Virus record (IMG/VR): IMGVR_UViG_3300036823_000117
Coordinates: 1 to 64,000 of that record
Strand: one strand, 5' to 3'
Origin: a virus
Length of the DNA: 64,000 nucleotides
Shown: positions 6,502 to 27,801 of the stretch, piece after piece
Layout of the letters: the number at the start of each line of letters is the position of its first letter
Position numbering within the stretch: position 1 is the first letter of the stretch
Notes under the pieces: model-generated
Databases searched by the model: none
What the model was told of the DNA's origin: nothing
What the model saw: only the letters and a program-made list of their open reading frames with translations
Program-made: the position numbers and the translations under genes

Positions 6502-7439
6502 TGGGTGATCTCCTTCATCTTCTGCAGGTCTCTTTTCAACCGGTTGATGGCCCGGGTTGTGCGGGTGAGGGAGGTCACCCAGCCATGGATCAGGGCCGGG
6601 TCAAGGTCTGCGGGGTCGACGAACTCCACTCCCATGGCCAGGCCCTCCAGCGCCGCGACCGTGCCTTGCACGATCTGGTCCGAGTCGCGGCCGTGGTTCT
6701 TGCGGGTCACCTCATCGGCGGGGATCACGATCGCCTCTCGCCTGATGAGGTCCCTGACATATGGCTCCGACCGGCCGATGGCGTCGGCGATCTGCCGGGA
6801 CGTGTGACCGCCGGCGGCCATTCCCCTAATGACGCCAAGGCGCTGGCCGATGGCGGCGAAGCTGCGGTCGCCGGGGTCGGGGGCGTCGGGGTAGTCCGGG
6901 ACTGCCGGCCGCCGGCCGCCGTCCGGGATGACCACGTGGTCGAAGCCGAGGCGGCGGGCCACGCTGACCCGGGACAGGACGCCTTGCGCGCGGCCTGCGG
7001 CGAGCGCCGCCTCGAACGCCTCGTCGGTGATGCCGTCAGCGAGGTTGTAGATCCCCGCTGACCGGCCGTTGCCACCGGGATACAGGTCGTTCCTGGAGAC
7101 GTAGTCCGTCGCGCAGGGAATCCCGAGAGCGTCGAGGCTGTGGCCGCCGCGGGTCTGGATCGTGCCGGCTGCCTGGCCGGCGCGCAGCGCGACCCCGAGG
7201 GTCCTGTCGCCGCGGCGCTGAAGCTCGGCGGCGGCAAGCCGGGCCTCGGGTCCGAGGTGCGCGTCGCGGACGGCGACGCGGATGTCTTCCGCGGCCGCCC
7301 GGCAGCCGCAGATCGCGGGGATGTCGCCGCGCATGGCGGCCTCGCCCAGGCGGAGGCGGACCTGGTCGCAGGCTTCCCGGACGTCGGCGACGCTGGCGAA
7401 CTCGCACGGCGGCACGTCCCGGGCCAGCAACGCCGTCAC
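6498..7439 (-). CDS. Helix-turn-helix protein of unknown role (313 aa)
   Basis: The start is taken as GTG at 7439, which overlaps the upstream HTH gene stop as GTGA. Longer frames shadow that gene. The first half has Ala/Arg-rich helices. A clear helix-turn-helix lies near residues 225-255 (GHTSRQIADAIGRSEPYVRDLI). The C-terminus ends in a basic helix. It could be a replication or partition DNA-binding protein working with the ParB-fold protein encoded next to it. Confidence 0.65.
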   Translation of the reverse strand: MTALLARDVPPCEFASVADVREACDQVRLRLGEAAMRGDIPAICGCRAAAEDIRVAVRDAHLGPEARLAAAELQRRGDRTLGVALRAGQAAGTIQTRGGHSLDALGIPCATDYVSRNDLYPGGNGRSAGIYNLADGITDEAFEAALAAGRAQGVLSRVSVARRLGFDHVVIPDGGRRPAVPDYPDAPDPGDRSFAAIGQRLGVIRGMAAGGHTSRQIADAIGRSEPYVRDLIRREAIVIPADEVTRKNHGRDSDQIVQGTVAALEGLAMGVEFVDPADLDPALIHGWVTSLTRTTRAINRLKRDLQKMKEITQ

Positions 7440-21818: not shown

Positions 21819-21971
21819 ATGCTGAAGAAAGTCATCACCTGGGGCATCGTCATCTTCGTCATCTACTACCTGGTGAGTAACCCGGGCGGCGCCGCCAACG
21901 TCGTTCATTCGGCGTTCGACGGCATGAAGACCGTCGGCCATTCCTTCTCCGGGTTCTGGACGAGCCTGTAA
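21819..21971 (+). CDS. Tiny membrane protein before the translocase (50 aa)
   Basis: The frame opens MLKKVITWGIVIFVIYYLV, one membrane helix, then a segment with NPGGAANVVHSAF. Its TAA overlaps the translocase ATG, so the two are co-translated. It resembles short proteins often found beside FtsK-like genes in actinomycete mobile elements. Confidence 0.7.
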   Translation: MLKKVITWGIVIFVIYYLVSNPGGAANVVHSAFDGMKTVGHSFSGFWTSL

Positions 21972-23938
21972 TGACCAGCCAGCCGGGAGGAGCCCGCCAC
22001 GCAGCCGCCGAGCACCGCGCCATCCTGGCGCCTGCCGGCTGGATGATCGCGGCGTGGATCTGTGCGAACGCGTTTACCCGCGCTCACGGCAACGACCCGG
22101 TTGAGCTGGCCGTGTTCGCTGATGCAGGCGTCGCGGTGTGGGCGTGGTTCGCCCGCATCCGCCACCTGCCCGCGGCGGCCATGACCGACAGCGGCCGGGA
22201 AGCCCGGCTGCGGCGGTACGCGTGGCGCTGCTATATCGCAGGCGCGATCTGGCTGGCCGCCGCATCCGCCGTGTTCGGCCCGACGTGGTGGATGGACCTT
22301 TTCCTGGTCATCGGCGGCCTGGTCCTCGCATCGCCGCACCTGTACCGCAACCAGATCGACCACTCCGAAGGCCCGAAGGTCATCGCCGGGGTCATCGCTC
22401 CCGCCGGGGAGCAGTCCGCGCCGCCACGCCAGCAGCCGGCCCGGTCGCAGGCACCCCAGCGGCCAGGCACCCCCCGGCAGTACGCCGCCCCGGGTACCAC
22501 GACCCTCCGGCCGGCCGCCAAGCCGCGGCCGCGGCCGACCGCCGACCCGGCCCGCGACGCCATCACCCGCGTGCTCCGCGAGTTCAAGATCGACGCGAAA
22601 GTCACCGGGTGCATCACCGGGCCCGCGGTCCTGCAGTACCAGATGACACCCGGTCCCGGCGTCAAGGTCGAGCGGATCACGCAGCTGACCGCGAACTTCG
22701 CCATGGCCCTCGGTCTCGGCAGATCGTCCGTGCGGATGATCGCCCCGGTGCCCGGCCGGTCCGTCATCGGGCTGGAAATCCCCCGCGCACCCGAGGACCG
22801 GCAGGTCGTCGCCCTCCGCGAAGTCCTTGAGTCCCCGGACATGCTCGCCGACCCCCACCCCCTGACCGTGCCCCTCGGCGTCGACAACGAGGGAAACGTC
22901 GTCACGCACGCCCTGCACAAGGGACCGCACACCCTGATGGCGGGTGCGACCGGCGCGGGCAAGTCGGTCAGCCTCAACGGCGTGATCGTGTCAATCCTGG
23001 TCCGCGCCACCCCGGCCCAGGTCCGGCTCCTGATGATCGACCCGAAGCGCGTCGAGCTCGCCGCTTACTCCGGCGTCCCGCACCTCCTCGGCCCGATCAT
23101 CACCAACCCTGTCGTGGCTGCCCAGCGTCTCGCCTGGGTGTGCGAGCAGATGGAAGCCCGCTACGACGCCATGGCCGCCGCCCACGTCAAGCACATCGAC
23201 GACTACAACAAGATCGACGGAGCCGACCCGTGGCCGTACTGGCTCGTCATCGTCGACGAGCTCGCCGACCTGATGATGGTCAGCAAGCAGAAGGTCAAGG
23301 ACATCGAGGTCCCCGACGTCGAGGACTGCATCGCCCGGATCAGCCAGCTCGCCCGGGCGTGCGGCATCCACCTCCTGCTCGCCACGCAGCGGCCCACCGT
23401 GGACGTCGTAACCGGCCTGATCAAGGCCAACGTCCCGTGCCGGATCGCGTTCGCCGTGGCCAGCCTTACTGACTCGCGGGTCATCCTCGACGCGCCTGGC
23501 GCTGAGCGGCTTAACGGGCAGGGCGACGGGCTGTTCCTCCCGATGGGCGCGAAGGACGCCATCCGCTTCCAGGGCGCCTTTGTCACCGAGGCCGAGATCA
23601 AGCAGGTCGTCGCCGAGTGCGTGGCCCAGGTAGCCCCGCCGTCTGCGCCAGTCCGCGGAAAGGTCATCCCCGCCGCGGTCGAGGCGCCCAGGCCTGAGCT
23701 TGACCCGGAACTGGTGCAGCAGGCCAGAGACCTCGTCGTCGCGACACAGTTCGGGTCGGTGGCGATGATCTCGCGGAAACTCCGCGTCGGCTTCGTCGAG
23801 GCCGGCGCCATCATGGCCGCCCTGGAACTTCAGGGGATCGTCGGGCCCGAGCCGGAAGACAGGTCGAAGGCCAGGGACGTCCTGGTCCGGCCGCAACCCA
23901 CGGAAGCGGCCCCGGCTGCGGAGGAAGAGGACCACTGA
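21971..23938 (+). CDS. FtsK/SpoIIIE-type DNA translocase (TraB-like) with gamma domain
   Basis: The 655-aa protein has N-terminal hydrophobic segments near residues 17-30, 40-60 and 80-110, then a Pro/Gln-rich linker. The FtsK beta and alpha motor has Walker A GATGAGKS at about 325-332, Walker B LVIVDELADL at about 425-434, and LLLATQRP downstream. A winged-helix gamma domain occupies residues 577-640 (ELVQQARDLVV, VAMISRKLRVGF). Chromosomal FtsK pumps DNA at septa. Streptomyces TraB is an FtsK-like motor that moves plasmid DNA between hyphae and recognises short repeats through its gamma domain. The surrounding membrane and wall-hydrolase genes favour TraB-like transfer. Confidence 0.92.
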   Translation: MTSQPGGARHAAAEHRAILAPAGWMIAAWICANAFTRAHGNDPVELAVFADAGVAVWAWFARIRHLPAAAMTDSGREARLRRYAWRCYIAGAIWLAAASAVFGPTWWMDLFLVIGGLVLASPHLYRNQIDHSEGPKVIAGVIAPAGEQSAPPRQQPARSQAPQRPGTPRQYAAPGTTTLRPAAKPRPRPTADPARDAITRVLREFKIDAKVTGCITGPAVLQYQMTPGPGVKVERITQLTANFAMALGLGRSSVRMIAPVPGRSVIGLEIPRAPEDRQVVALREVLESPDMLADPHPLTVPLGVDNEGNVVTHALHKGPHTLMAGATGAGKSVSLNGVIVSILVRATPAQVRLLMIDPKRVELAAYSGVPHLLGPIITNPVVAAQRLAWVCEQMEARYDAMAAAHVKHIDDYNKIDGADPWPYWLVIVDELADLMMVSKQKVKDIEVPDVEDCIARISQLARACGIHLLLATQRPTVDVVTGLIKANVPCRIAFAVASLTDSRVILDAPGAERLNGQGDGLFLPMGAKDAIRFQGAFVTEAEIKQVVAECVAQVAPPSAPVRGKVIPAAVEAPRPELDPELVQQARDLVVATQFGSVAMISRKLRVGFVEAGAIMAALELQGIVGPEPEDRSKARDVLVRPQPTEAAPAAEEEDH

Positions 23939-24198
23939 TGCCTAGGCCCAGGGAAACGATGCTTGGCCAGCCGATCCAGGTTCGCGCCGGACTCCAGGCC
24001 ACCTGCCGGACCTGCTCCTCGCGCGGCGTCAGGGGCGGCGGCCGCCTCGTCACCGACGGGACGGAGATCGCAGACGTCACCCAGGAGACCCGGTTCAACG
24101 GGCGGTTCACCGTCACCACCGGGCGTGCCGCTGTCTTGCTGGACTGCCCGGACTGCGGCAGCCCTGTCCAGTTCGCCGTACCCAATATCAAGATCTGA
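23938..24198 (+). CDS. Small zinc-ribbon protein (86 aa)
   Basis: The ATG at 23938 overlaps the translocase stop as TGATG. Two CxxC pairs (CRTC and CPDC) frame a beta-rich core, a zinc-ribbon layout. Tight coupling suggests it works with the translocase. Confidence 0.7.
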   Translation: MPRPRETMLGQPIQVRAGLQATCRTCSSRGVRGGGRLVTDGTEIADVTQETRFNGRFTVTTGRAAVLLDCPDCGSPVQFAVPNIKI

Positions 24199-24209
24199 GA
24201 GGCAGCCTG

Positions 24210-24530
24210 ATGTCCCCCGTCCTCATCCTCGCCGCCATCGCCGCCGCCCTCGTGCTCGTGTACGTCATCTCGAAGGCCGACGCGTGGATGCCCGTCACGG
24301 TCCTGGGCCTCTCCGGCGCCGCCTGCTACTACGGGGTGTCGAGTTGGCTCAGGAAGACGCCGGCCGCGGCCAGGCCGCCCGCGCCGAAGATCGTGACCCA
24401 CGTCATCACCCACGTGGTCACCCGCCCGGGCAAGCCCACGCTGACCGGAGGCGAGATCACCCTGCTGCTCATCGTCGGCGGCGTCCTGGCCCTCGCTTAC
24501 CTGATCAACCGCACCCGCAGGAGCAGCTAG
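24210..24530 (+). CDS. Membrane protein with three helices (106 aa)
   Basis: Hydrophobic segments lie near residues 4-20, 28-45 and 82-98. A Lys/Pro-rich loop lies between helices two and three. A GAGAGGCAGCCT leader precedes the ATG. Function unknown; part of the transfer-like cluster. Confidence 0.65.
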   Translation: MSPVLILAAIAAALVLVYVISKADAWMPVTVLGLSGAACYYGVSSWLRKTPAAARPPAPKIVTHVITHVVTRPGKPTLTGGEITLLLIVGGVLALAYLINRTRRSS

Positions 24531-24532
24531 CC

Positions 24533-24967
24533 ATGGGCATCTTCGGAGCCAAGCGCGCCCGCTTCACCGACACCTACCAGACCTGGACGGCCTGCTTCGC
24601 CGAGCCGGTCGTGGCCCGGTCCTCCGACATGGAGGACGACGACCTCATCGTCGGCGCCCGCGCTTACGGCGCCCGGTTCGACTCACCGTCTGCGCCCGGC
24701 GCTGCGCTGAGCATCTGGGCGTACCCGGCGCCCGCCGGGCCCGGGACCCCGGACGGCACCATCGTCCTCGCCTACCGGGTCCACTACTCGGTCGGCTCAT
24801 GGGGGACCGCCCTGTACCACTGCGACGTCGCGTGCGGCGAGTGGTACGACAACCTCCCCGCCGCCGAGGCGGACGCCGTCAGATTCATCGCCGGACTCAT
24901 CAGTTCCGGTCCCCACACGGACCGGGTTCCGGACTTCTACACCGACTGGGATGGGCGGCGATTCTGA
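24533..24967 (+). CDS. Protein of unknown function (144 aa)
   Basis: The ATG at 24533 opens MGIFGAKRARFTDTY. The protein is soluble and mixed alpha/beta, with YRVHYSVGSWGTALYHCDVACGEW in two halves. It ends in FYTDWDGRRF and overlaps the next start as TGATG. No family was recognised. Confidence 0.6.
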   Translation: MGIFGAKRARFTDTYQTWTACFAEPVVARSSDMEDDDLIVGARAYGARFDSPSAPGAALSIWAYPAPAGPGTPDGTIVLAYRVHYSVGSWGTALYHCDVACGEWYDNLPAAEADAVRFIAGLISSGPHTDRVPDFYTDWDGRRF

Positions 24968-25074
24968 TGCCCCCCTCCCGGCCCGGAAGCCTCAAGGCGC
25001 GGATAGATCCGCCCGCGGATGGATCCGCGCCCGCGCGCGGGAACTACCACGACGAAAGCGGACGAGTCAAGTGA
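24967..25074 (+). CDS. Tiny protein (35 aa)
   Basis: This short frame overlaps both neighbours (TGATG before, GTGA after). It is rich in Pro, Arg and Gly and has no predicted structure. Coupling on both sides is the only support. Confidence 0.4.
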   Translation: MPPSRPGSLKARIDPPADGSAPARGNYHDESGRVK

Positions 25075-25226
25075 GCACTGACCTAATCGCCTTCCTCGCG
25101 TGGCTCACGGTCGTCGTCACGGTCGTCGTGATCTACCGCCGGTCCCACCGCAACTGGCCCCCTGACCCCAATCCGCCCCATCCGCAACAGAACCCCAGCG
25201 ACCCAGACGAAGAGGCGTCACCATGA
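25071..25226 (+). CDS. Tiny membrane protein (51 aa)
   Basis: The GTG at 25071 overlaps the previous stop as GTGA. One membrane helix (LIAFLAWLTVVVTVVVIYR) leads to a Pro/Asn-rich tail. Its stop overlaps the DUF2637-like gene. Confidence 0.6.
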   Translation: MSTDLIAFLAWLTVVVTVVVIYRRSHRNWPPDPNPPHPQQNPSDPDEEASP

Positions 25227-26284
25227 CCGCCATGCTGCATGACATCCCGTGGGAGGTCCCCGCGTCGCTGGCCGGCGCTGCCCTGCTGCTGCACACCGCC
25301 CGGCGCGTGTTCCGCGCCATCCGCGACCGCCAGCCGGCCGGCTCACGGCACGGCCTGCGCACCGCCATCATCGCGCTCGGCGCGGCGCTGGCCCCCGTGT
25401 TCTTCACCGACATGTTCATGACCGTCGTCAACCTGCTCGGCCCGTCGTTCCACGGGTGGGCGTGGACGGTCCCCGCTGCGACAGAAGGCAGCTTCATCTT
25501 CCTGTACCTCCTCGACCTGTACCTCCTCGCCGAGGGCAAGCCGATGGGATGGCTCCGCTTCGCGCCGTACCCGTTCGCGCTCGCGTCGCTCGTGCTGAAC
25601 GTCTACAGCTCGTTCGGCGACGCACCGGGCATGCTCGGCCACGGCGTCGTCACTGTCGCGTTCTTCCTGCCGCTCCTGGCGGGCGAGGCGGCCGTCAAGT
25701 CGATGTCCGTCAGCGACAAGGAGGTCGCTCTGGCCGACGAGATGAAAGCGGCCCGCCAGTACGCCATTGACCTGGTACGCGACCAGCTGGGGTTCTTCTG
25801 GCGGCTCCGCCCGTCAGTCCCGACGCTGCTCCGCACCCGCATCGTCAGCGGCCGCCTCCCCGGCCATGTGGCCCGCGCGGTCCGCGACGGCGTAGCCGCC
25901 TGCGACGCGACAGTCTGGGAAGCCGCCGTCGAGAAAATGGTCACCGATGCGCTGACGCAGCGCGCCAAGATGGCCGCCGCTGTCGTGCGACAGGAACGCG
26001 ACATCCAGCAGACCGCCGATGCGACAACCGACACGACAACGGATGCGACAACCGGTGCGACACGGGATGCGACACCAGAGCGACAGGCCGCGCGACAGCC
26101 CAAGCGACAACTCACCGCCAGCGAGCGCGACAAGAACCGCGCGAAAGCCGCCCGCATTGTCGCGGCCGAGCCGGCCATCCGCGCTGAGGATCTGGCCGCC
26201 CGGTGCGGTGTCACGAAGCGGTCGGCTGAGAGGTGGAAGGCCGAGATGAGCCGCCCCAACCTCCAACTCGCCGAGAGCTCGTAA
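25223..26284 (+). CDS. DUF2637/Spd-like membrane protein with C-terminal HTH
   Basis: The 353-aa protein has about five membrane helices in residues 10-155, in the DUF2637 style (TAIIALGAALAPVFFTDMF, FIFLYLLDLYLLAEG, LPLLAGEAAVKS). A cytoplasmic helical part follows. Next is a Thr/Asp/Arg-rich stretch at about 255-300 encoded by the GCGACA array. It ends in a helix-turn-helix (EDLAARCGVTKRSAERWKAEM). DUF2637 proteins are common on actinomycete plasmids and islands. A role in plasmid spread is inferred from the context. Confidence 0.78.
   Translation: MTAMLHDIPWEVPASLAGAALLLHTARRVFRAIRDRQPAGSRHGLRTAIIALGAALAPVFFTDMFMTVVNLLGPSFHGWAWTVPAATEGSFIFLYLLDLYLLAEGKPMGWLRFAPYPFALASLVLNVYSSFGDAPGMLGHGVVTVAFFLPLLAGEAAVKSMSVSDKEVALADEMKAARQYAIDLVRDQLGFFWRLRPSVPTLLRTRIVSGRLPGHVARAVRDGVAACDATVWEAAVEKMVTDALTQRAKMAAAVVRQERDIQQTADATTDTTTDATTGATRDATPERQAARQPKRQLTASERDKNRAKAARIVAAEPAIRAEDLAARCGVTKRSAERWKAEMSRPNLQLAESS
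25987..26132. repeat. Helically phased GCGACA repeat array
   Basis: Exact GCGACA occurs at 25987, 25998, 26021, 26045, 26057, 26069, 26080, 26092, 26104 and 26127, with one variant (ACGACA) at 26033. Spacings are 11, 12 or about 23 bases. The repeats fall in all three codon frames of the gene, so the pattern is at the DNA level. The arrangement is typical of iterons or of transfer-locus repeats bound by a TraB gamma domain. Confidence 0.75.
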
Positions 26285-26299
26285 CCCGCCAATAGACGT

Positions 26300-26349
26300 C
26301 CCGGCGGCGCTAACGCAGGCGTCCCCCCCGCCTGGCCAGCGCCGCCGGG
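26300..26349. terminator. Nested 12-bp hairpin after the array
   Basis: CCCGGCGGCGCT at 26300-26311 pairs exactly with 26338-26349. A second hairpin (GCAGGCG with CGCCTGC-like) lies inside, with a C run in its loop. It could be a terminator or a cruciform in a DNA-processing site. No T run follows, so the terminator call is moderate. Confidence 0.5.
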
Positions 26350-26381
26350 GCTCCAACCCGAACTGATCAAGGAGAAGCTCC

Positions 26382-26627
26382 ATGAGCAACTACGCAGCAC
26401 CCGGTGCCCGCGTCGGCCTCCAGGTTGACGGGAGCGTCACCATCACGGGCGGCCTCGTCATCGACATGAGCGACCCGAACTGGCCGGGCCGCGACGCTGG
26501 CGAGCCGGCCAGCGACGAAGACCGCGAGATGACCGCGGTTCAAGAAAGCCCCTTCAACGTCGCCGGCGGTAACGACGTCGTCGGCGTCCAGGCCGGCACC
26601 GTGACCCGAGACCTGGACGAGTCGTGA
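26382..26627 (+). CDS. Protein of unknown function (81 aa)
   Basis: The ATG at 26382 follows AAGGAGAA. The protein opens with a beta-rich half (VGLQVDGSVTITGGLVIDM) and then is acidic. It overlaps the next gene as GTGA. Confidence 0.6.
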   Translation: MSNYAAPGARVGLQVDGSVTITGGLVIDMSDPNWPGRDAGEPASDEDREMTAVQESPFNVAGGNDVVGVQAGTVTRDLDES

Positions 26628-27067
26628 GCACTGCATGGGACCGGTTCGCCGCGGACTGGCCCGAGTCGGCCGCGCTCGCGCAGCGGCAGTGGGACATCGC
26701 CCGCGGCCTGGAGCAGAACGAGATCCTCATCCTCGACGAGGAGTACCACTGTTCCGACGGCACCCCGGCCGTGATCGGGTTCATCGACACAGACCTGATC
26801 CTCGCCGTAGTCGCCGGCACCGCGGAGGAAGCGGGCGCCGGGATGCAGCCGGACCGGCTGGCGTATCTGCGGGCCGAGGCCTGCACCTGGGCTGACCGCA
26901 TCCGCGGCACCCGCGGCCTCCAGCCGGGAACAGTCCCGTATGACGTGCGGCGCCTCCTGCTCGGCGGTCGGCTCGACACCCTGCGGGTAGACGTCACCTA
27001 CAGCGACGCCGACCACCTGATGACCTGGCAGCGGAACGTCGGCGGCCTCGTCGGGCTCGCGTCATGA
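26624..27067 (+). CDS. Protein of unknown function (147 aa)
   Basis: A GTG at 26624 overlaps the previous stop. The protein is acidic and contains a central Cys (EEYHCSDGTPAVIGFIDTD). It is likely a single alpha/beta domain. Coupled on both sides. Confidence 0.6.
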   Translation: MSTAWDRFAADWPESAALAQRQWDIARGLEQNEILILDEEYHCSDGTPAVIGFIDTDLILAVVAGTAEEAGAGMQPDRLAYLRAEACTWADRIRGTRGLQPGTVPYDVRRLLLGGRLDTLRVDVTYSDADHLMTWQRNVGGLVGLAS

Positions 27068-27282
27068 GCGCCGACCCGGATGCCTGCACCTGGACGACCA
27101 GCCCCGCCGGCGAGACCGCGGCCCATCCCTGCACCCGGCACGAGGACGGCCAGCACGTCTTCGCTAACGGGCACCGCCTGCCGCTCGCCGTCACCTCGGT
27201 CACCTACCCGCCCGTGCGGCCCGCCGAGCCCGGCGCGTCGGTGGACGTGCGGGAGTTCCTCGCGGCCCGCGGGCTACGCTGA
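27064..27282 (+). CDS. Small protein with His/Cys residues (72 aa)
   Basis: The ATG overlaps the previous stop as ATGA. Cys and His residues at PDACTW, HPCTRHEDGQHVF may bind a metal. No family was recognised. Confidence 0.5.
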   Translation: MSADPDACTWTTSPAGETAAHPCTRHEDGQHVFANGHRLPLAVTSVTYPPVRPAEPGASVDVREFLAARGLR

Positions 27283-27286
27283 CCTC

Positions 27287-27472
27287 ATGACGGGTGGCGA
27301 GATCCCGCAAGAACTGATCGACATCCTTGACAGCCGCGCCGGGAAGACCCATTCCCGGCGCGGCTCCGTCGTCACCTGCCTCGCCGAGATCCTCACCCGG
27401 TACGACGAGATCCGCGGTCGGTTGCACTCCCGCGAGGAGCCTTCCACCGAGAAAGGCCACGAGCACCGTTGA
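27287..27472 (+). CDS. Small protein of unknown function (61 aa)
   Basis: The ATG at 27287 lies 4 bases after the previous stop. The protein is helical and charged (GGEIPQELIDILDSRAGK). It is coupled by TTGA to the next gene. Confidence 0.5.
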   Translation: MTGGEIPQELIDILDSRAGKTHSRRGSVVTCLAEILTRYDEIRGRLHSREEPSTEKGHEHR

Positions 27473-27801
27473 TTGAGGACGAACGCGGCGCCTTCTATTC
27501 CTGGGAGTACCAGTTGGATACCGCACGCGTTCTCCGCTACACGGGTCTCCGCGACCAGATCCACCCCCTCGACGCCGTCGCCTGCACCTACGACGGCCGG
27601 GCCCACTTCGACGAGTCATCCCGCCGCGACCGCGAGATCCACGAGAACGCCGTCCACGGACCGTGGGTCACCGAGGCCGGCCTGGTCGCCATCATCGACT
27701 TGCGGCCCCAGCTGGAACGCATGGGATGCGCCCCCACAGACCCGGCGCTGCCCGACGACATCCCCCAGCGCTGGGAGCGCAACCCCCTGACCTACTCGTA
27801 A
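27469..27801 (+). CDS. Protein of unknown function (110 aa)
   Basis: A TTG start at 27469 overlaps the previous stop as TTGA. The sequence has an ordered aromatic beginning (FYSWEYQLDTARVLRYTGL). No family was recognised. Confidence 0.5.
   Translation: MIEDERGAFYSWEYQLDTARVLRYTGLRDQIHPLDAVACTYDGRAHFDESSRRDREIHENAVHGPWVTEAGLVAIIDLRPQLERMGCAPTDPALPDDIPQRWERNPLTYS

What the first reader, a model, noticed from the sequence alone, without database searches (positions are those of the whole stretch)
25987..26132. Helically phased GCGACA repeat array inside the DUF2637/Spd-like gene
Ten exact copies of GCGACA lie at spacings of 11, 12 or 23 bases over about 145 bases, close to one or two helical turns. 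The copies fall in all three codon frames, so the encoded residues change (Ala-Thr, Arg-Gln, Arg-Asp) while the DNA word stays the same. That is direct evidence for selection on DNA rather than on the protein. The gene lies 1.3 kb downstream of an FtsK/TraB-like translocase with a gamma domain. In Streptomyces conjugative plasmids the TraB gamma domain binds short direct repeats in a transfer locus. The array is therefore a good candidate for a clt-like locus, or for iterons of an origin.
Basis: partly seen in the sequence, partly recalled or inferred. Interest (0 to 1): 0.85.

Follow-up and report, generated by a model that had tools for sequence, protein, structure and literature searches.

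The report
Self-embedded DNA-word array in membrane-protein gene
A phage gene for a membrane protein with a DNA-binding tail carries, inside its own coding sequence, a row of ten identical six-letter DNA words that relatives suggest is the docking site for the protein's own tail, not for the neighbouring DNA pump.

Summary
Ten GCGACA copies lie at 25987-26132 in all three codon frames; 20,000 synonymous reshufflings of the gene gave at most six. The spacing is a steady 11.75 bp, not the 10.5-bp helical repeat. The host record is a 118.6-kb temperate actinophage with a conjugation-like module (FtsK plus a DUF2637-like membrane protein with a C-terminal helix-turn-helix, HTH).

The proposed clt/TraB-gamma reading is only partly supported. 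Related actinomycete elements do carry clt-type arrays directly beside traB. Arrays inside DUF2637 genes are a second class: 16/147 DUF2637 genes versus 7/968 control genes from the same loci. Six DUF2637 genes sharing one HTH type (56-73% identical) all embed the same word, CGTACGG. Their TM parts are mostly diverged and their translocases largely unrelated; arrays beside those translocases, where found, use four other words. When the HTH diverges, the embedded word shifts to CGTGCGG/CCGCACG. So the embedded word follows the protein's own HTH.

Best explanation: a membrane-anchored HTH protein reads a site array inside its own gene, tethering the element near its translocase or aiding segregation, as SpdA2/sps does in pIJ101. 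Binding is inferred, and the window's own HTH has no close relative.

The parts
25987..26132 (+). Array of ten GCGACA words, period 11.75 bp, all three codon frames
25907..25912 (+). Outlying GCGACA copy 80 bp upstream of the array
25223..26284 (+). Gene for a 353-aa DUF2637-like membrane protein with C-terminal HTH; array lies in its linker
   Evidence: Pfam DUF2637 E=0.0017, 18.7 bits (cut-off 22.8); HTH_23 E=0.034; hydrophobic segments at residues 43-73, 85-103, 134-163
26117..26248 (+). C-terminal tri-helical HTH (TASERDKNRAKAARIVAAEPAIRAEDLAARCGVTKRSAERWKAEM), proposed reader of the array
   Evidence: AlphaFold model, helices 8-24, 30-37, 41-51, pLDDT about 92 over these; Foldseek matches are HTH domains of DeoR, FapR, Lrp/AsnC type but none below E=0.001
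21971..23938 (+). FtsK-type translocase with alpha, motor and gamma domains
23708..23887 (+). FtsK gamma domain with altered recognition helix (KLRVGFVEAGAIMAALE versus KLRVGFAKAGRLMDLLE in other actinomycete plasmid FtsKs)

Best explanation
The array is a set of binding sites for the C-terminal HTH of the very protein whose gene contains it. The protein is anchored in the membrane by its DUF2637 region. Several HTHs bind side by side, one per 11-12 bp, so that the phage or element DNA is tethered at the membrane beside its FtsK-type translocase. This would serve transfer or spread, or segregation of the extrachromosomal form, and could also autoregulate the operon. Shown here: the DNA-level constraint, the protein architecture, the excess of embedded arrays in DUF2637 genes, and the match between embedded word and HTH type in relatives. 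Inferred: actual binding, the membrane tether, and the biological role.
For: Constraint on DNA: 10 copies versus at most 6 in 20,000 synonymous shuffles. Same design elsewhere: DUF2637-type genes with an HTH and an embedded multi-frame array include pSROS01 (CGTACGG), L098 (ACCCGG) and L017 (GCGGAA, mostly one frame); L143 (CGAACC/GGTTCG) is similar. Embedded multi-frame arrays with z>=4: 16/147 DUF2637 genes versus 7/968 control genes from the same loci, odds ratio 16.8, p=4e-10. Reader identity: a search with the 45-aa pSROS01 HTH alone found L385, L386, L387, L388 and L088. Counting pSROS01, all six embed CGTACG: 11, 7, 8, 15, 6 and 17 copies against synonymous means of 1.6, 1.9, 1.2, 4.6, 1.2 and 2.7. 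None of the other 145 DUF2637 genes passed the test for CGTACG (at least 5 copies, z>=2). Their HTHs are 56-73% identical, the TM part has median identity 24% and the linker 27%, and translocases are 2-26% identical except one pair at 49%. Arrays found beside the translocases use other words: GTGACA (L385), GTCGAC (L388), GGACAC (L088), CGCACA (pSROS01). Elements with the diverged HTH KRWCEGVLAEAR embed CGTGCGG/CCGCACG instead. For the window itself: GCGACA is enriched in only two of the other 146 DUF2637 genes, L077 and L091, which rank second and fifth in similarity to the window's HTH. Precedent: SpdA2 of pIJ101 binds a site inside its own gene and both affect segregational stability (PMC4170104).
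Against: No binding experiment. The window protein is below Pfam's DUF2637 cut-off (18.7 versus 22.8 bits) and its HTH has no close relative, so the HTH-word link for GCGACA itself rests on two distant genes. Three genes with comparably similar HTHs (L065, L066, L069) have no GCGACA, and L081, whose HTH resembles L098's, lacks L098's word. Most DUF2637-HTH genes (about 130/147) show no clear embedded array. Shared ancestry of whole genes could explain part of the concordance. In L017 the same word also sits directly upstream of ftsK.
Confidence: 0.62

Rival explanations
1. clt-like locus: the FtsK gamma domain binds the GCGACA words and starts double-stranded DNA transfer from here.
For: Arrays of short direct repeats cluster at FtsK/TraB genes in related elements: 12 of 31 arrays within 1.5 kb, which is 13% of the bases searched. 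Known clt words recur: TGACACC beside traB in L091, CCGCACA in pSROS01. The window FtsK has a gamma domain whose recognition helix is no longer of the usual type. In L017 the DUF2637-gene word also lies right before ftsK.
Against: Typical traB-adjacent arrays lie within about 120 bp of the translocase gene; this one is 2.05 kb away, and no array was found at either end of the window's ftsK. In sister elements embedded words follow the DUF2637 HTH, not the translocase. pSROS01 has an ordinary gamma helix yet an unusual embedded word.
Confidence: 0.2
2. Replication iterons: the array is an origin embedded in an initiator-like gene, as in phage lambda O.
For: GCGACA arrays in unrelated phage contigs L237 and L250 lie in genes that look to me like replisome organisers, and origins embedded in initiator genes are an established design (own knowledge). 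The record has ParB-like genes and may replicate as a plasmid.
Against: The host protein is a membrane protein of a family that sits in transfer modules, and the AICE-like locus L091 has a separate primase-polymerase-like gene. No initiator was found beside the array.
Confidence: 0.08
3. By-product of repeat expansion in a disordered linker, without DNA function.
For: Tandem Repeats Finder sees a 12-bp array; the linker peptide is low in complexity (DATTDTTTDATT).
Against: The word is exact in three frames while its surroundings differ, and synonymous shuffles do not reach it. The same word type recurs in genes sharing an HTH with little linker similarity.
Confidence: 0.05

Closest known systems
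SpdA2/sps of Streptomyces plasmid pIJ101 (PMC4170104)
   Same: A protein of a Streptomyces conjugative plasmid binds a site located inside its own coding sequence; spread and stability functions of actinomycete elements.
   Different: sps is a 12-bp palindrome conserved between plasmids and SpdA2 is a small protein with a zinc-finger-like N-terminal region. Here it is an array of six-base direct repeats whose word changes between elements, in a gene for a membrane protein with a C-terminal HTH.
clt loci of Streptomyces plasmids (pWTY27, pJV1, pSVH1; PMC3583192)
   Same: Tandem short direct words in the transfer module of an actinomycete element with an FtsK/TraB translocase.
   Different: pWTY27 clt lies next to and partly within traA and is bound by TraA. 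This array is 2 kb from ftsK inside another gene, and embedded words in relatives follow a different protein.
Origin iterons embedded in initiator genes (phage lambda O; from own knowledge)
   Same: Binding sites for a protein encoded within the gene of that protein, in a linker.
   Different: No initiator function; the protein is membrane-anchored and sits with a DNA translocase.

Membership tests
clt locus of actinomycete plasmids | Array of short direct repeats in the transfer module | tested here: met
clt locus of actinomycete plasmids | Directly adjacent to, or overlapping, the translocase gene | tested here: not met
   2.05 kb from the end of ftsK, several genes between; no array at the ends of ftsK
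clt locus of actinomycete plasmids | Word recognised by the translocase gamma/winged-helix domain | tested here: inconclusive
   No direct test; in sister elements embedded words follow the DUF2637 HTH, not the translocase
clt locus of actinomycete plasmids | Required in cis for transfer | not testable with these tools
   needs mating assays
SpdA2/sps type | Binding site inside the coding sequence of the spd-type gene | tested here: inconclusive
   The array lies inside 25223-26284, but binding by the gene product is not shown
SpdA2/sps type | 12-bp palindrome CGTCACGTGACG | tested here: not met
   GCGACA is not palindromic
DUF2637 proteins | Pfam PF10935 match over the curated cut-off | tested here: not met
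   18.7 bits versus 22.8; relationship suggested by hydrophobic segments, C-terminal HTH and neighbouring FtsK, so treated as DUF2637-like
KOPS-reading FtsK | FtsK gamma domain | tested here: met
   PF09397 E=4e-13
KOPS-reading FtsK | Base-contacting residues of the gamma recognition helix kept | tested here: not met
   GFVEAGAIMAALE versus GYNRAARMIEAME in 2ve8; which residues contact DNA is from own knowledge
Iteron replication origin | Initiator gene with the iterons | tested here: inconclusive
   No initiator recognised near the array; no replication test

The most novel reading that the evidence does not exclude
DUF2637-HTH genes form a family of one-gene, self-reading membrane tethers in actinomycete plasmids, AICEs and phages: each gene carries the docking array for its own DNA-binding tail, the word and the HTH diverge together, and this gives each element a private address separate from its clt.
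Probability: 0.42. Interest if true: 0.78.

Novelty: new variant of a known kind. Interest (0 to 1): 0.64.

Why it matters
DUF2637 is a family of unknown function, and the only paper in the searched library that names it gives one passing mention. If its HTH reads an array in its own gene, the family gets a testable molecular role, and the target word can be predicted from sequence alone. It would separate two kinds of cis-acting site in actinomycete conjugative elements that a sequence reader easily confuses: traB-adjacent clt and the self-embedded array. It also adds a clean natural data set for HTH-DNA recognition, and shows such a module on a temperate phage.

Tried and rejected
Close relatives of the window protein: none in viral contigs, plasmids or phages. 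A weak match in one genome, L013, led to the family search.

GCGACA arrays in other viral contigs: mostly simple repeats or replisome-organiser-like genes of other phages, not DUF2637. The same pattern in 398 relatives gave mostly simple repeats, with the control pattern also common.

Search with the window's HTH alone: only generic HTH hits, none with GCGACA enrichment in the reading frames examined; minus-strand hits were not re-oriented.

Rank correlation of HTH similarity with word enrichment over all 147 genes: not significant for the window's word (rho 0.04) and weak to moderate for others. The signal is confined to close HTH types.

Plasmid FtsK regions without arrays (L012, L014, L016) show that arrays are not universal.

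Rfam: nothing in 24000-27500. PADLOC: no match for the array gene; the FtsK motor matches SspH and mads_8 models, which I put down to the shared ATPase fold. An AlphaFold model of the HTH gave no confident structural relative.

Full report
What is there. Ten exact copies of GCGACA lie at 25987-26132 with spacings 11, 23, 24, 12, 12, 11, 12, 12, 23, in all three codon frames of the gene 25223-26284. GCGACA is not enriched in the window overall, and no other hexamer in the record forms a comparable cluster. Permuting synonymous codons within the gene 20,000 times gave a mean of 1.64 and never more than 6 copies, so the repetition is not a by-product of the amino-acid sequence. The period is 11.75 bp (coherence 0.98) rather than 10.5 bp (0.27). 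The phrase 'helically phased' should be replaced by 'evenly spaced, about one protein footprint per copy'.

Setting. The window is part of a 118,586-bp virus record. It encodes a large terminase, portal, major head protein, serine-type integrase and ParB-like proteins, so it is a temperate actinophage, possibly able to live as a plasmid. Within it lies a plus-strand block that looks like an actinomycete conjugation module: an NlpC/P60 protein, an FtsK with alpha, motor and gamma domains (21971-23938), small membrane proteins, and the array gene. The array gene encodes hydrophobic segments in the DUF2637 region, a variable linker that holds the array, and a C-terminal three-helix HTH. Its Pfam score is below the curated cut-off, so 'DUF2637-like' is the careful name.

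Arrays near translocases are a general feature. Annotated plasmids and about a hundred loci from actinomycete elements were scanned for clusters of one word in several frames. Clusters concentrate at FtsK/TraB genes (12 of 31 within 1.5 kb, 13% of the sequence). Several lie directly 3' of traB: TGACACC in L091, GGACACC in L088, TGCAAC in L068, GCCACG in L081, CGTCCC in L108. TGACACC is the experimentally bound clt word of pWTY27 and CCGCACA, found before ftsK in pSROS01, is the clt word of pJV1 (PMC3583192).

A second class of array sits inside DUF2637 genes. pSROS01 has 17 CGTACG copies on both sides of its HTH-coding stretch. L098 has nine ACCCGG copies in all frames, L143 many CGAACC/GGTTCG copies, and L017 GCGGAA. 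Among 147 DUF2637 genes, 16 carry a multi-frame array above the synonymous null (z>=4), against 7 of 968 other genes in the same loci (odds ratio 16.8, p=4e-10). These genes are not phylogenetically independent, so the p-value is indicative.

Who reads the embedded array. The pSROS01 HTH (45 residues) was used as the only query. It found five more DUF2637-type genes with the HTH core SWCEKAVR, among them L088. All six embed CGTACG far above the synonymous expectation and roughly 6 to 40 times more densely than the rest of their loci. None of the other 145 DUF2637 genes reached at least 5 copies with z>=2. Their HTHs are 56-73% identical; the rest of the protein is mostly diverged (median 24% for the TM part, 27% for the linker), although some TM pairs reach 62%. 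The translocases found in five of these elements are largely unrelated (2-26% identity except one pair at 49%). Where an array lies beside the translocase its word is different each time: GTGACA, GTCGAC, GGACAC, CGCACA. Four elements with a diverged HTH (KRWCEGVLAEAR or GQRWSEGALADAK) carry CGTGCGG/CCGCACG instead, a one-base change of the word; the excess is clear in L389 and modest in the other three. This is a double dissociation: the embedded word follows the gene's own HTH, the adjacent word follows the element's translocase.

Back to the window. Its HTH has no close relative, so the same test cannot be run for GCGACA. The available hint is that GCGACA is enriched in only two other DUF2637 genes of 146, L077 and L091, which rank second and fifth in HTH similarity. 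L065, L066 and L069, about as similar, lack it. No array flanks the window's ftsK. Its gamma recognition helix (GFVEAGAIMAALE) has lost the residues that, from my own knowledge of the FtsK-KOPS structure, contact DNA. That fits either a changed specificity or a loss of specificity.

Most likely mechanism. The membrane-anchored protein binds the array in its own gene through its HTH, several molecules side by side, and so holds the element's DNA at the membrane close to the FtsK pore. The nearest experimental precedent is SpdA2/sps of pIJ101, where a plasmid protein binds a site within its own gene and loss of either lowers segregational stability without affecting transfer (PMC4170104). Steps shown: DNA-level constraint, architecture, excess of embedded arrays, HTH-word concordance in relatives. 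Steps inferred: binding by the window's HTH, membrane tethering, effect on segregation or transfer. I give the self-reading model 0.62, clt 0.2, origin iterons 0.08 and non-functional repeat 0.05; the rest is left for readers not considered, such as a repressor of the operon.

Limits. Arrays with imperfect words would be missed. The HTH-word comparison was designed after seeing the first two cases (pSROS01 and L088); the four further elements found are the independent test.

Noticed in passing
window 24999-25028: Two tandem 14-bp palindromes, GCGGATAGATCCGC and GCGGATGGATCCGC, 16 bp apart, just upstream of the small gene and the DUF2637-like gene; looks like an operator.
   Followed up: partly
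L385:14063-14232; L388:11834-11912; L088:14309-14499; L068:6041-6095; L081:13300-13352; L108:7249-7325: traB/ftsK-adjacent arrays with element-specific words (GTGACA, GTCGAC, GGACACC, TGCAAC, GCCACG, CGTCCC); probable clt loci.
   Followed up: partly
L017:5868-6089 and 6574-6808: Streptosporangium sp. NBC_01495 plasmid: the word GGCGGAAC occurs about ten times inside a membrane-HTH gene and, in opposite orientation at 22-23 bp steps, directly upstream of ftsK.
   Followed up: partly
L237:3161-3258 and L250:2330-2357 (minus strand): GCGACA arrays inside replisome-organiser-like genes of unrelated phages, probably origin iterons; same word by chance or by the search pattern.
   Followed up: partly
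L109:14366-15762: Dense GATCGG/TCGGGT arrays over about 1.4 kb near a DUF2637-like gene, purpose unknown.
   Followed up: no
L126:1100-1553: 29 copies of a 16-bp unit containing AGCCTG, perfectly tandem.
   Followed up: no
window 21971-23938: A temperate actinophage carries a conjugation-type FtsK with gamma domain plus accessory genes, suggesting a phage-plasmid/conjugative hybrid.
   Followed up: partly
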